Assembly: GCF_001748385.1 (NCBI RefSeq)
Contig: NZ_BCLI01000005.1
Span: 186,001 to 250,000, forward strand
DNA: 64,000 bases
Source: Vulcanisaeta thermophila
Lineage (GTDB): Archaea; Thermoproteota; Thermoprotei; Thermoproteales; Thermocladiaceae
Direction: 5' to 3'
A model generated the notes under the pieces. The model ran no database searches, was not told the origin of the DNA, and saw only the letters and a list, made by a program, of their open reading frames with translations. Shown in pieces: positions 36,408-51,272 of the stretch. How positions within the stretch are numbered: the first letter of the stretch is position 1; every line of letters starts with the position of its first letter. A program made the translations under genes and the position numbers.

Positions 36408-36416
36408 CTTATATTA
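36408..36416 (-). promoter_or_regulatory. TATA box of hemC overlapping the tnpB stop codon
   Basis: On the minus strand this reads taatataag, centred 27 bases before the hemC ATG (36385). The first three bases are the TAA stop of tnpB. The element end (agaaacggc, reverse of 36420-36428) therefore lies directly upstream of the hemC core promoter. Confidence 0.55.
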
Positions 36417-37817
36417 CTTGCCGTTTCTCCCTACCGCTTCATGTGTCGGCGGTAGGGAGTTTGCTCTCGCCCACTCCTTCATTGGTAGCACAGCTACCTC
36501 CGGAGTGGGGTCATTGAGCTTTGGGCTCAACGGCACGGAGCCCTCATTCACTAGGCGTCTCAGGAGGTTCATACACGCAATGACGTCTTGGTCGTGGGAA
36601 AAACCGCAACGGGGGCAAGTCATGGCCCTCCCCGCAGAGCGGGTCATCGGGCGAAAGCCACAGCGTGGGCATGTTTGAGAAGAATATTTAGGGTCAACCT
36701 CAACGATAGGTACACCATGCTTTTCAGCAGCCTCTTTGATGGCCCCAATCATGCCTCTGAAGGCTGCCTGGTATATACGGTGTCTAAGTGCAGGGTTCTC
36801 GACATGGTTAATCATTTTCTCGCTGACACGCTTTGGGAGTCTTTCAACGACAATACCGTAGCCCAGACTCCCAGCGGTCTTCACTATGGCCACAGCTATC
36901 TTTCTCCTCCAATCAGTCTTCCTATCACGCTCTCTCAGCCTGGACATCCTCTTCCTCCAAATACTGAACAATGGGTACTTCTTTCCATTAACCTCAATCA
37001 CAAGCCTCTCCTGAAGCCTCCTCCTATGCTCACTATACCTCACTATAACTCTTCCTAACATCGTAATAAACTTGTATGCCTTTTCATTGACTAGTACTGT
37101 GACATTATTCTCATTCACATCCACGGTAATCCATCCCCCTGGACTATACACCTCAATTTCCTTCTCGAAAACGAAGTAAACATAAACCCTCCTCTCTTTG
37201 TGATCTAGCTTTAGCTTTGGTTGTGTTCGCAGTTTCCACCCAGAATTAATGTACTTCCAGAAAAGCTTGTGTGGTTGAAGTTCTATAACGGTCCATCCTC
37301 TATGAGTAGCTATTTTAATTGCTGTATATCCAAGTGGTTTCCATAAGTGGTCGTCTAGCCAGATAGATACGTTCTTGACAATGGGCTTCTCGGTATAAGC
37401 CTTTCCACGCTTTTTTAGCTCCATAAAGCTCTTGATACGTGTAGCAGCATCCTGGCACGCCATGTGGATATAGTGTGATGGAAGTTGAGGATACTTATTC
37501 CGTAGTATGCGGTACATATGCTTCTTCAAACCAGTAAACGTCTTAATGCCATGCATGAACCCATAGTCCACAAGCTCAAGAATCATATGCCCATATGACT
37601 CCTCAAGTTCTCTAAGAATCTCGTACTTCCTCCTAGTTAACACAACGCTAGGCACAACAACTGTCCTGGTAGCTCTGGCCATCTTTCTCAACGTGGCCCT
37701 GATCTCCGTGCTTAAGGCCCGGGCTTGGCGAGCCGGGTTTCTCCCTGCGTTGTTGACATTTGAGGCGGCGGAGTCAACTCGCCCTGGGGTTCCCTCGTTT
37801 TTGGTTTGTTTTGCCAT
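36414..37817 (-). CDS. tnpB: TnpB, IS200/IS605-type RNA-guided nuclease
   Basis: Complete 467-residue TnpB. Residues 1-230 hold a basic N terminus, the helix-turn-helix/REC part and a WED-like beta region. The RuvC catalytic acids are Asp233 ([10 protein letters not shown]), Glu325 ([10 protein letters not shown]) and Asp411 ([13 protein letters not shown]). The zinc ribbon has CPRCG at 383-387 and CPRCG at 401-405. All key residues are kept, so it is probably active. No tnpA lies nearby, so it is a TnpB-only element. Unlike most genes here it has a perfect Shine-Dalgarno site, so its mRNA has a leader. Its 3' end forms hairpins expected of an omegaRNA. The stop codon overlaps the hemC TATA box. 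Confidence 0.93.
36420..36545 (-). ncRNA. Putative omegaRNA scaffold at the tnpB 3' end
   Basis: Three hairpins are visible in the last 130 bases of tnpB (plus-strand coordinates). 36427-36436 pairs with 36450-36459 (10 bp). 36470-36477 pairs with 36502-36509 (8 bp), and its loop contains 36484-36489 paired with 36493-36498. 36523-36528 pairs with 36538-36543 around loop AACGGCACG. TnpB guide RNAs are known to come from the 3' end of tnpB plus the right end of the element. The same hairpins recur at 50.6 kb. The guide would begin just after 36420 on the minus strand, i.e. in the hemC promoter. Confidence 0.5.
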
Positions 37818-37823
37818 GTGCTT

Positions 37824-37832
37824 TCACCTCCT
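37824..37832 (-). promoter_or_regulatory. Perfect Shine-Dalgarno sequence of tnpB
   Basis: AGGAGGTGA on the minus strand, 6 bases before the tnpB ATG. This is fully complementary to the archaeal 16S 3' end. It is noticeable because most neighbours show leaderless TATA spacing instead, and it supports the ATG at 37817 as the true start. Confidence 0.75.
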
Positions 37833-38046
37833 GACTCATTACCCTGGTCCTTGAGCCACTTACAAAGGGTCAGGTTGGTTTAAGAGGCACTCACGGTTAA
37901 GCCCCTCAGTGGCTAGTTCAATCAACTCACTGTAAACGTCCCCCAGTGACCCTAACAGTCCCGCACCCCACGTGAAGCACCATTACACATCGAGGGCGCC
38001 TTAAAAGGGCCCGTGAAACCACGACAATGCGCCACGTGCGTCATGG

Positions 38047-38358
38047 AAAACCACGACTCACCAAAGACGCCATGACATAATGAGGAGACCGCAAAAGATC
38101 ATTCCACATTGAGAAGTAGAAAGAAGGATCTGCCAGAAACAATCAACCCAAGGACTGCGTTGCTATGGATTGCATGGCCACGGAAACAAAACATGAACAC
38201 TCACCCAAAAGACCCAACAACCCACCCAGCAAAACACCAACCAAAGACCAAAACATCATTCTTCATGAAGTGATGGGTGGGTTGGTTAAGGTGCCTGGGG
38301 GCTCTTCGTAAGCAGACCCTTTCATGTTGACTTTTGCAAAACGGTTAGTCGTGGTTTT
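38047..38358. repeat. 12-bp inverted repeat bracketing 312 bp
   Basis: AAAACCACGACT at 38047-38058 and its exact reverse complement AGTCGTGGTTTT at 38347-38358. A third, direct copy of the core AAACCACGAC lies at 38016-38025. The bracketed 312 bp has no gene. The arrangement fits the ends of a small non-autonomous element, but I see no target-site duplication. Confidence 0.4.
38214..38287. repeat. Nested hairpin in gene-free DNA
   Basis: The outer arms (38216-38228 and 38274-38287) pair over 13 bp with one bulged base. Inside, CATCA (38254-38258) can pair with TGATG (38271-38275), enclosing the palindrome CTTCATGAAG. The inner and outer stems share two bases, so they would compete. It could be a structured RNA or a transposon end. 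Confidence 0.4.
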
Positions 38359-38495
38359 GTAATGAGGAACCCCTGAAAACTCTCTAATTCATCACTGGGT
38401 ACTTAATGAACAATTATTCCACGGCTCGTGAAAAACTTCTACTAATCCGTGGGAATAGAGTTCAATGCTCCACCTGTGAACCATGGATTTTTACC

Positions 38496-38536
38496 CACCC
38501 CACGTGGGGTTTGTGGACCCGGAACCTGCAAGCTAG
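38496..38536. repeat. Dispersed ~41-bp repeat with CCCCACGTGGGG palindrome (copy 2)
   Basis: Matches the copy starting at 11281 at about 31 of 41 positions counted by hand, beginning with an identical 14-base block around a 12-bp palindrome. It lies in the gene-free region between tnpB and the membrane ATPase gene. Confidence 0.4.
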
Positions 38537-38722
38537 GAGCGCTAACACCAGCACTAATTTACGCACCAGTCAACCAGGTATCTAGTCCTCACAACCCTAG
38601 GACTACTCTTCAAAGTAACATAATGAGTGCCCAGCCGTCTACAAGCCTCTCTTGGAGGTAGTAGCTTTTCATCCATATGCTTCAGTCCACTATAGAATGT
38701 TATGATTTGTTATATTTAAATG

Positions 38723-40897
38723 TTACTTGCCCTCAATCCTAAATGACGAGGCAAATTCCCTGTACTTCTCCAAATTCCACACGCAGATGCTTACCTGATC
38801 CCCACTTAATAATTGTTTCAGTTTTTCTACAGCCTCCACAGGGGGGCACGTGGATAGTATACTAAGTGCGTATTTCGCATAATCACCCTCAAGCTTTAAC
38901 CTTCCAATAATCTCCCTTAATTCCTCAGAATCCGCTGGCTCAATGACCACGACCCTATCCACAAGGTTTTTAATAACGTTGCTGTCAATCCCCCATGGAT
39001 CATCACACTCAATGAGTAAAGCCATGTGCTTCATCCTCACAATATCAACTAATCTACTCAACACATTGGGTGCCTTATCCATCAACTCCCTAAGGTTTGG
39101 TACGTGAACAATCACGTTATCCATCATTGTGATGGATGGATCATCATAACCAACTACCGTTAACCCCAATTGCTTAGCCACATAATTCACCAACGCAGTC
39201 TTGCCAGACTTGGAGGGGCCCACTATCATTATCACGGATGCCGTGCCTATGCCCAGCTCCTTCATCATGTCCTTAAGCCTCACTGCAGAATCCACGTAAT
39301 TAATCAACTTGGACTTAACACTCTCATGTACTAAATCCAGTGGGTCTATGCTCACATGAACCTCCTGCACCCTAGCCCTTGCCCCCCTATGTTCCTTAGG
39401 TTTCGCCTTACTCCTGGGCGTGGTTACGATTGGCTGCTTCGGGATAACCGCACTAGGTTGCTCAACACCCTGGGGCGTGGTTGCACCGCTTGTGGTGACT
39501 AAATTCTTTCTCTTGACCTCCTCCACGGGCTGCGGCTGCTTCGCTTCCATAGGCTTGCTCACGGTTTCCTCCACTGCCTTGGTTTGCGATACTATGGTGA
39601 TGCTTGGCTTTACCTGTGTGAGCACCACTAGGTTATTACGCATGGTGCTCCTCATGACCTCCTCATTATTGGTAAGTATTACAATACCAAACCTACGCGC
39701 CCTTGATAAATCCCTAACCTGCTTAATAACCCCCTTACCCAACTTATTGGGTATCAATACCAGCGCAGCCCCATGACTCAATGAGTAATTCAAAACCTCG
39801 GTGGGTATCTGCTCAATATCACCCATGACCACGAATCCCTTGCTCATTGAGGCACCGAGTAATGACTTACCCATTAACTCAAGCTTATTGGGTGTTTCGT
39901 TTATGAAAACCACCGCGGAACCCTTATTATTAATTACTTCAATGACCTTGCTCATTAACTCTCCATACTCCTTACTATGCTCCACCACCTTCTTAAACAC
40001 ACCACCGTACTCCATGAGCATTAGGTGATCTAGCATGGGTATGACAATGGGCGCCCTGGCACCCATGCCCTCAGGCCTTGTCCATGTCGACACCCCCTCA
40101 ATTACATGCGTACCATACAGCGCCAGGCCCATTAGTATGGAGCCGATAAGCATCAGTGGGCTCACCACCATACTCACTGGGTTGTAGGGTATGTAGAGCA
40201 GGGCTACTGTTAGTAATTCGGGCGTCACGTAGTTCACCACCAACTTCATATTCTTATTAATCTGCACACCAAGGAGTGTTTTGGATAGTACGAGGCTGGT
40301 TATGAGGGGCATCATTATTAATACGATGATTAGGTAGTAAAGGGGTATGAGGGATAATTCACTGAGTAGTGATGATAATGAGAGCCCCTGCTCAGTAAAC
40401 ACGCTGTAAAACCCACTTATAATATTCACGTTCCCCAGCGAGATCCTGGTTATTGGCTCCCAATTAATACCCAGCGATGACTGTGCAATCACGTAATTGA
40501 ACAGCAATAGCACGTAAGTAACAACACCCCTAACACTGCCCCTATAAATACTAGGTGTGATGCTCAACGGCACAGATAACCAGTAAAGTGGCGTGAAAAG
40601 TAACGCCCAGGATATAAGGGTTATGGAACCCACGATACCAGGTTCAACAATGAGTAATGAAGCTATGAGCGTTGGTAATACAATCACTACGGCACGCCCC
40701 AGAGACGCTATGAAGCTAAGTATTACATAAACCAGAAGTATAAACGTGGATAGACCCTCCCTACCCATAATGGTAAGTGCAATTACTAATACAATTAATG
40801 GTGGCAGTACGTAAGAGGGAATTATTGGGAATATCAGGTAGAGGAGGGCCAGGGCTATGGATGCTATGGTGGCGTTTACTATGTTGTTCAGTTTCAC
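38723..40897 (-). CDS. Polytopic membrane protein with C-terminal P-loop ATPase domain
   Basis: 724 residues. Residues about 5-265 contain some eight to ten hydrophobic segments. A soluble part follows (about 290-430), then a Pro/Lys/Thr-rich linker (about 450-510). The C-terminal ATPase has Walker A IVGPSKSGKTALVNYVAKQ near residue 560 and a Walker-B-like ALLIECDDPW near residue 630. The small domain ends in a helical lid. I do not recognise the family; the layout suggests a membrane-bound AAA-type ATPase working on the cytoplasmic face. It probably follows the HTH gene, 76 bases upstream, in one unit or under its control. Confidence 0.7.
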   Translation of the reverse strand: MKLNNIVNATIASIALALLYLIFPIIPSYVLPPLIVLVIALTIMGREGLSTFILLVYVILSFIASLGRAVVIVLPTLIASLLIVEPGIVGSITLISWALLFTPLYWLSVPLSITPSIYRGSVRGVVTYVLLLFNYVIAQSSLGINWEPITRISLGNVNIISGFYSVFTEQGLSLSSLLSELSLIPLYYLIIVLIMMPLITSLVLSKTLLGVQINKNMKLVVNYVTPELLTVALLYIPYNPVSMVVSPLMLIGSILMGLALYGTHVIEGVSTWTRPEGMGARAPIVIPMLDHLMLMEYGGVFKKVVEHSKEYGELMSKVIEVINNKGSAVVFINETPNKLELMGKSLLGASMSKGFVVMGDIEQIPTEVLNYSLSHGAALVLIPNKLGKGVIKQVRDLSRARRFGIVILTNNEEVMRSTMRNNLVVLTQVKPSITIVSQTKAVEETVSKPMEAKQPQPVEEVKRKNLVTTSGATTPQGVEQPSAVIPKQPIVTTPRSKAKPKEHRGARARVQEVHVSIDPLDLVHESVKSKLINYVDSAVRLKDMMKELGIGTASVIMIVGPSKSGKTALVNYVAKQLGLTVVGYDDPSITMMDNVIVHVPNLRELMDKAPNVLSRLVDIVRMKHMALLIECDDPWGIDSNVIKNLVDRVVVIEPADSEELREIIGRLKLEGDYAKYALSILSTCPPVEAVEKLKQLLSGDQVSICVWNLEKYREFASSFRIEGK

Positions 40898-50386: not shown

Positions 50387-50626
50387 ATGAGGGCTGGGGA
50401 GTTATCGGTGGATCTTAGGGGTGTGGGTTGTCCGTATGGTAGTATGGTGGCCATTCAATACTTTAGGGATGCACCCACGGGCTTAATCATCACCTTCATA
50501 CTGGATGATGAGGATTGCTTCACAACACTCAAGAAGTTATTCCCACTCCTGGGCCAAAGGGTTATTAGTGCCGAGGGTGGTAATGGAATTTACAGACTAA
50601 AGATTATGAAGGTGAAATCCCTCTAA
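50387..50626 (+). CDS. TusA/SirA-like sulfur-carrier protein
   Basis: A small TusA-fold protein. Its active-site pattern VDLRGVGCPYGSMVAIQYF matches the family LDLRGxxCPxP motif with the sulfur-carrying Cys kept, but Pro is replaced by Gly. It would pass persulfide sulfur in tRNA thiolation, cofactor synthesis or sulfur metabolism. The frame opens at GTG 50369. I choose the ATG at 50387 because TATA gttatttaag (50355-50364) is then 27 bases upstream. It ends next to the decayed TnpB end. Confidence 0.75.
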   Translation: MRAGELSVDLRGVGCPYGSMVAIQYFRDAPTGLIITFILDDEDCFTTLKKLFPLLGQRVISAEGGNGIYRLKIMKVKSL

Positions 50627-50634
50627 TCCCCAGA

Positions 50635-50776
50635 GCCGTTTCTACCTGGTTGTTTCCAGGGAGTTCCACCTCGCCCGTGGTTCCTTTTGATTGAGCCACG
50701 AGGTCATGGGTGGCTGTCGAGCCCAACGGCACAGGGCTCCCATCTAGGTGGGGAAGCCCACCAGGGCTCAGAGCAC
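50635..50776 (-). mobile_element. Decayed TnpB 3' end / omegaRNA-like fossil
   Basis: Shares the terminal gccgtttct and GGGAGTT-n4-CTCGCCC blocks with the 3' end of the tnpB at 36.4 kb, in the same order. Hairpins are kept: 50642-50649 with 50656-50663 (one mismatch), CGTGG/CCACG at 50676-50680 and 50696-50700, and 50719-50724 with 50734-50739 around loop AACGGCACA. The minus strand also reads GSPVPLGS, like TnpB C termini (intact copy: EGSVPLSP). No nuclease body remains. The end abuts the tusA-like gene. Confidence 0.55.
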
Positions 50777-50840
50777 CGCTCCCATCACCCCAGCGGGCAC
50801 AATCAAGTAAATACCATTTTCCCCAACCACCAAAATATTT

Positions 50841-51272
50841 TCAGCTCCTAACAATCCTATCCAGCGCGTCCCTAACCCCCTGCATGAAGTGCTTCCTAAC
50901 CCACCATTTCATGGGGATTTGCCACCAGGTAATGTCTACATCGTACTCACAAACCAGTGCCTTACCTGCCTCATCAACATAAGCCTTTATTACGCCTCTG
51001 ACTGGTCCGTCCACGTTGTTGAAGGTGAGGGTTTTTGTTTTATTGTCCACGTTTATCCATGCGTGCCCTATGTTGAGGTTTCTGGGGGCTGGGAATGCGT
51101 ACCTAATCCTCACGTAGTAACTATTGCCCCTTCTCTCAATTACCGTCACCTCCCTATGGCCGTGCCAGTACTTGGGGATTGACTCCACATCACTTAACCT
51201 ACCCCATGCTGTTTCCGGGTCCAGATTGTCTAGGCTCACGGATACCCTAAACGTTATTCTGCCAAGGCCCAT
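50841..51272 (-). CDS. SRPBCC/START-fold protein
   Basis: 143 residues with the polyketide-cyclase/Coq10-like ligand-binding pattern: an N-terminal strand (ITFRVSVSLDNLDPETAW), DVESIPKYWHGHREV, alternating beta strands and a long C-terminal helix (WVRKHFMQGVRDALDRIV). It probably binds a hydrophobic ligand. TATA (ctttaagg, about 51299 on the plus strand) is about 30 bases upstream. It is divergent from the M1 aminopeptidase gene. Confidence 0.7.
   Translation of the reverse strand: MGLGRITFRVSVSLDNLDPETAWGRLSDVESIPKYWHGHREVTVIERRGNSYYVRIRYAFPAPRNLNIGHAWINVDNKTKTLTFNNVDGPVRGVIKAYVDEAGKALVCEYDVDITWWQIPMKWWVRKHFMQGVRDALDRIVRS

What the first reader, a model, noticed from the sequence alone, without database searches (positions are those of the whole stretch)
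50635..50776. OmegaRNA-like fossil whose hairpins are preserved by compensatory changes
The 50.6-kb locus and the 3' end of the intact tnpB (36420-36545) share short sequence blocks, and their stems are kept despite sequence change. In the last hairpin the loop AACGGCAC is conserved, while the stem reads GGGCTC/GAGCCC in one and GAGCCC/GGGCTC in the other, giving two paired substitutions. The terminal stem has 10 bp in one and 7 bp plus a mismatch in the other, with different sequence. The nuclease body is gone at 50.6 kb. The locus may be a dead remnant, or a stand-alone guide RNA usable by the TnpB at 36.4 kb in trans.
Basis: partly seen in the sequence, partly recalled or inferred. Interest (0 to 1): 0.75.

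Follow-up and report, generated by a model that had tools for sequence, protein, structure and literature searches.

The report
Miniature IS607 transposon carrying only guide RNA
The 50.6-kb locus is not a random scrap of the nearby tnpB gene but a tiny (~210 bp) archaeal transposon that has lost its transposase and nuclease genes while keeping its left end with a likely promoter and a complete, well-folded guide RNA; it belongs to a family of such RNA-only elements in related genomes, though whether any of them works is untested.

Summary
In detail: window 50636-50746(-) folds like the 3' end of the 36.4-kb tnpB, and one covariance model recognises both. The interpretation needs changing. The closest relatives are not the 36.4-kb gene but full IS607 elements (serine-recombinase tnpA + tnpB) in other genomes of the family. 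The 50.6-kb locus is a ~210-bp miniature IS607 element: left end with a BRE/TATA-like box (50832-50848), complete omegaRNA scaffold (four hairpins plus a pseudoknot, 50636-50797), right end ...AAACGG, then a flank-derived guide. I found 12 TnpB-less copies in 7 genomes of 3 genera, 3 of them in this genome, plus a decayed fourth here. Several keep the left end of the full elements: 22 nt identical in one case, and in G018 a miniature whose RNA is 92% identical to that of an intact element in the same genome. In one subgroup three genera share the same deletion junction, so miniatures persisted as miniatures. Stems covary within the TnpB-less set. This genome has no intact IS607 TnpA and only one TnpB with this RNA type, so the local copy is stranded; trans use is possible but unshown. 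Precedent: haloarchaeal PATEs. New variant of a known kind.

The parts
50636..50848 (-). whole miniature IS607-type element (LE + omegaRNA + RE)
   Evidence: homology to full IS607 elements and other miniatures
50832..50848 (-). left end GGAGCTGAAAATATTTT, BRE/TATA-like; matches GGGCTGAAANNTTTTTAATG / GGGCAGAAACGTTTAAATAT of other copies and of full elements upstream of tnpA
   Evidence: promoter function inferred, not tested
50757..50797 (-). hairpin H0 (CCCGC..GGGGT..GAGC-GGT-GCTC..GCCC..GGTGGG); its 5' edge is where homology to full tnpB elements begins
50719..50739 (-). hairpin H1 GAGCCC-TGTGCCGTT-GGGCTC
50725..50729 (-). pseudoknot 5' arm CCGTT in the H1 loop
   Evidence: paired with 50636-50640
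50666..50713 (-). hairpin H2 (CCACC..GGTGG outer, CATGA/CGA internal loop, inner stem)
50643..50662 (-). hairpin H3 (TCCCTGG..CCAGGTA)
50636..50640 (-). pseudoknot 3' arm AACGG = right end of element (GG crossover dinucleotide)
   Evidence: GG crossover from PMC10711439
50616..50635 (-). presumed guide (flank sequence, overlaps the 3' end of the + strand TusA/SirA-like ORF ending at 50626)
   Evidence: position after AAACGG; perfect match in this genome only at itself
36414..37817 (-). intact TnpB (467 aa), distant cousin and the only TnpB in this genome with an R1-type RNA
36421..36550 (-). its omegaRNA
   Evidence: 61 bits, not used to build the model
38605..38685 (-). 27-aa remnant of IS607 tnpA of the 36.4-kb element
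38711..38732 (-). left end of the 36.4-kb element (GGGCAAGTAACATTTAAATATA)

Best explanation
The locus is a ~210-bp non-autonomous (miniature) IS607-family element. An internal deletion removed tnpA and nearly all of tnpB, and joined the left end (with the tnpA promoter-like box) to the complete omegaRNA scaffold (H0-H3 plus CCGTT/AACGG pseudoknot) and the right end. Shown: anatomy, homology to full IS607 elements, multiple TnpB-less copies, conserved structure (confidence about 0.85). Inferred: it is or was transcribed leftwards as an RNA ending in a guide copied from its right flank. A compatible TnpB supplied in trans could then cut the uninterrupted allele of the insertion site and so favour retention of the element. 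In this genome it is now immobile, because no IS607 TnpA is left, and it can act only if the 36.4-kb TnpB accepts its RNA.
For: Full IS607 elements (resolvase-type TnpA + TnpB) in G001, G018 and G019 end in RNAs 73-82% identical to the locus. LE: 22 nt identical between standalone C1 (L009) and the full G001 element upstream of tnpA, and similar LE in further full and miniature copies. G018: a miniature with an LE match (89% over 37 nt) and 92% RNA identity (144 nt) to an intact 1.9-kb element in the same genome, body absent. TnpB-less copies in 7 genomes: R1 hits without a PF07282 hit upstream. Covariation: 87.4% of cells paired versus 79.2% shuffled and 27-52% when slid; TnpB-less set alone 81.9%, 17 pairs with double changes versus 10.3, score 0.387 versus 0.179, 0/500. 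H0 is kept and covaries, and in the second clade it is kept while ~75 nt between H0 and H1 is deleted. The pseudoknot is invariant in 13/13 model sequences and GCGTT/AACGC in G018 L024 is a double change. Published IS607 traits match: GG crossover, three stem-loops, a pseudoknot required for activity (PMC10711439).
Against: No expression data. Some copies are clearly decaying: L023 lacks CATGACC and half of H3, L057 and L064 lost H1, G000 C6 lost the pseudoknot arm. Structure conservation could be inherited from intact parents. This genome has no intact IS607 TnpA, and its only TnpB with this RNA type is a distant one. Relatedness of the sequences inflates the covariation counts.
Confidence: 0.58

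Rival explanations
1. Inert relic: a miniature or internally deleted IS607 copy whose RNA is neither expressed nor used. Its fold persists because it was cut recently from intact parents or because the ends are needed for transposition.
For: No IS607 TnpA in this genome; decayed sister copies; the right end lies inside the RNA, so DNA-level constraint could protect part of it.
Against: C7 is only 77% identical to the window copy yet keeps H1, the outer H2 stem, most of H3 and the pseudoknot. Structure covaries within the TnpB-less set. H0 is retained although it lies far from the right end. A shared LE-H0 junction in three genera points to long-lived miniatures.
Confidence: 0.35
2. Host-adopted guide or small RNA acting on the neighbouring TusA/SirA-like gene or another target.
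For: The presumed guide overlaps the 3' end of the + strand ORF ending at 50626.
Against: The overlap follows from insertion just behind the gene; the guide has no other good match in the genome; the insertion is not at a conserved syntenic site; guides differ between copies.
Confidence: 0.04
3. Decayed copy of the 36.4-kb tnpB itself.
For: Same RNA family, same C-terminal reading frame (EGSVPLSPK / DGSPVPLGST).
Against: Other genomes hold much closer full elements (82%, 75%, 73% identity over 128-140 nt); the 36.4-kb RNA is among the more distant members of the aligned set.
Confidence: 0.02

Closest known systems
IS607-family elements with TnpB and reRNA/omegaRNA (ISXfa1, ISFba1; PMC10711439, PMC11061315)
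   Same: serine-recombinase partner in full relatives, ends with GG, stem-loops plus pseudoknot, guide right after the right-flanking G
   Different: no tnpA or tnpB in the element; archaeal RNA not matched by any Rfam family, RAGATH-18 included
PATEs of Haloquadratum walsbyi (PMC3119063), IS605-type elements with the core deleted; [quoted passage not shown]
   Same: transposase-free core-deletion derivatives of a TnpB transposon in archaea, several copies
   Different: IS605-type palindromic ends there, IS607-type here; there described as terminal remnants before omegaRNA was known; here promoter-like LE plus complete RNA fold shown by covariation
MITEs in general
   Same: non-autonomous short derivatives mobilised in trans
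   Different: no terminal inverted repeats noticed; carries a structured RNA gene

Membership tests
TnpB omegaRNA/reRNA | conserved stem-loop scaffold covarying with that of tnpB-linked RNAs | tested here: met
   one CM covers both; covariation
TnpB omegaRNA/reRNA | pseudoknot between a loop and the 3' end before the guide | tested here: met
   CCGTT/AACGG in 13/13 model sequences; double change GCGTT/AACGC in L024
TnpB omegaRNA/reRNA | encoded at the 3' end of tnpB | tested here: not met
   no PF07282 hit near the copies; upstream gene is an unrelated cyclase-like ORF
TnpB omegaRNA/reRNA | binds TnpB and guides cleavage | not testable with these tools
   needs biochemistry
IS607 family | serine-recombinase TnpA with HTH and TnpB in the autonomous relatives | tested here: met
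   PF00239 and HTH_17 in L094 and L028, PF07282 in L094
IS607 family | GG at both ends for dinucleotide crossover | tested here: inconclusive
   RE ends CGG, LE begins GG; no close empty site to fix the exact boundary
MITE/PATE-like non-autonomous element | several short copies sharing both ends with an autonomous element, no transposase | tested here: met
MITE/PATE-like non-autonomous element | mobilised in trans | tested here: inconclusive
   different flanks and guides per copy; syntenic interval without the element in G017 and G024, flanks too diverged for an exact empty site
RAGATH-18 RNA | match to the Rfam model | tested here: not met
   no Rfam match even at E<=1

The most novel reading that the evidence does not exclude
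These are guide-only selfish elements: miniature IS607 copies maintained as stand-alone omegaRNA genes that load a resident TnpB in trans and direct it to the empty version of their own insertion site, so that the RNA alone secures its retention.
Probability: 0.25. Interest if true: 0.75.

Novelty: new variant of a known kind. Interest (0 to 1): 0.5.

Why it matters
It gives natural TnpB-less omegaRNA genes with promoter-like left ends, some beside an intact cognate element (G018), and so makes testable whether TnpB guide RNAs act in trans and whether non-autonomous transposons exploit a resident RNA-guided nuclease for their own upkeep.

Tried and rejected
A K-turn or C/D-box reading of H0: the motif is not kept in C7 (by eye). 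Derivation from the 36.4-kb tnpB: closer full parents exist elsewhere. A known Rfam family: none. Guide target elsewhere in the genome: one 3-mismatch site, no more than the reversed-pattern control. Orthologous insertion site in the genus via the cyclase-like neighbour: not syntenic, no element there. Viral copies: none with the exact H1 motif. MAFFT alignments with full H3 loops misplaced 3' ends, so loops were trimmed by hand for the model. The script machine was lost, so no tree was built.

Full report
What is there. The locus was read on the minus strand against the 3' end of the 36.4-kb tnpB. The shared blocks and the two paired substitutions in the GTGCCGTT hairpin are real. The 36.4-kb gene encodes a 467-aa TnpB with a TNB/zinc-finger domain, related by sequence to solved TnpB and Cas12 proteins. 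Translation of the 50.6-kb locus gives the same C-terminal tail in one frame (DGSPVPLGST versus EGSVPLSPK), so it derives from a tnpB 3' end.

Further copies. The host genome (G000, 2.02 Mb, 10 contigs, 99.8% complete) has two more copies without a TnpB: C1:184550-184713 (90% identity, near a tRNA-Ser gene) and C7:61019-61155 (77%). Relatives carry full elements: G001, G018 and G019 have tnpA (IS607-type serine recombinase; resolvase domain plus HTH confirmed by Pfam for G001 and for a second G018 element) and a tnpB about 44% identical to the window TnpB in G001 and G018 (frameshifted in G019), with 3' RNAs 82%, 75% and 73% identical to the 50.6-kb RNA. So the 50.6-kb locus belongs with those elements rather than with the 36.4-kb one.

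Anatomy of the miniature. Comparison with full elements shows that similarity starts at about 50797-50798, at the 5' edge of a hairpin (H0), and runs to AAACGG at 50636. Upstream lies a short left end, GGAGCTGAAAATATTTT in the window. It resembles GGGCWGAAANNTTTWAAT in the other copies and in the full elements, where it precedes tnpA and looks like an archaeal BRE/TATA promoter. Twenty-two nucleotides of this end are identical between the C1 standalone copy and the full G001 element. That the box is a promoter here is inference.

RNA structure. A model of 113 positions was built from 13 sequences, six of them TnpB-less. It supports H1, H2 and H3 (87.4% of cells paired; 12 pairs with double changes; covariation score 0.285 versus 0.140 in shuffles and 0.05-0.12 when slid). 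The CCGTT/AACGG pseudoknot is invariant in the 13, and the divergent G018 locus L024 has GCGTT/AACGC, a double change. Restricting to 12 TnpB-less copies still gives 81.9% paired, 17 pairs with double changes (10.3 in shuffles) and a score of 0.387 versus 0.179, against 85.8% and 0.466 for 15 tnpB-linked RNAs. These alignments were fitted to the model and the sequences are related, so the controls are not strict probabilities. H0 covaries as well (92.8% paired). By eye 11 of the 12 TnpB-less copies keep all five pseudoknot pairs.

Distribution. The model finds 42 RNAs in 13 of 25 genomes of the family, including the 36.4-kb one that was not in the model, and weaker matches in another family of the order, e.g. 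12 in G029. Setting these beside TNB-domain hits (list truncated) and the sequences themselves gives 12 TnpB-less copies in 7 genomes of 3 genera, plus a decayed one at G000 C6. For L056 (G024) no left end was recognised. In G018 a miniature (C1:897172) shares its RNA at 92% over 144 nt, and its left end, with an intact 1.9-kb element at C1:1860068-1861992. In a second subgroup, miniatures of G012, G018 and G003 share the left-end-to-H0 junction; those of G012 and G018 have lost about 75 nt between H0 and H1 that full elements keep as coding sequence, while the G003 ones have lost more, H1 included. H0 was therefore kept while the spacer was dropped, and the miniature form is older than the split of those copies or was passed between genera.

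Mechanism. IS607 elements cross over at GG dinucleotides, in ISXfa1 the flanking nucleotide is part of the RNA scaffold, and the same study tested a pseudoknot as a requirement for activity (PMC10711439); the anatomy here matches. The likely cycle is this: TnpA from a full relative mobilises the miniature in trans; the left-end promoter transcribes the RNA into the right flank; a compatible TnpB uses it to cut uninterrupted copies of the site. Only the anatomy is shown. In the window's genome the sole match to an IS607 TnpA query is a 27-aa remnant, and the sole TnpB with this RNA type is the distant 36.4-kb one (other TNB-domain genes exist, without an R1-type RNA), so the copy is stranded and may be inert. 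The guide matches the genome perfectly only at its own site.

Known or new. [quoted passage not shown] In the RAGATH-18 survey of IS607 TnpBs, 64% of the RNAs lay next to a TnpB (PMC11061315), so TnpB-less copies may exist there too. From memory, not tested, TnpB-less omegaRNA elements have also been noted in Geobacillus. What is added here is an IS607-type archaeal family in which promoter-like left end, complete RNA and right end are kept across genera. I file it as a new variant of a known kind.

Noticed in passing
window 36414-38732 (-): The 36.4-kb tnpB lies in its own degraded IS607 element: left end at ~38732, only a 27-aa tnpA remnant (38605-38685), then ~800 bp without a large ORF before an intact tnpB.
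   Followed up: partly
L097 (G000 C6:37390-37502): A fourth, decayed miniature in the same genome: left end with BRE/TATA-like box intact, pseudoknot arms and H1 lost.
   Followed up: yes
G029: Twelve matches to the RNA model in one near-complete genome of another family of the order; not examined for TnpB linkage.
   Followed up: no
L095 (G018 C1:635995) and L096 (G014 C1:1807406): An isolated IS607 left end, nearly identical together with its flanks in two species, sits next to what looks like a tnpB-type gene in the opposite direction.
   Followed up: partly
window 50390-50626 (+) and 50841-51272 (-): A small TusA/SirA-like ORF ends 10 bp from the right end of the element, so the guide is antisense to its 3' end; on the other side the cyclase-like ORF takes its last codons from the left end.
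   Followed up: partly
L024, L047, L062: A second, divergent TnpB group in the family whose RNAs use GCGTT/AACGC instead of CCGTT/AACGG for the pseudoknot.
   Followed up: partly
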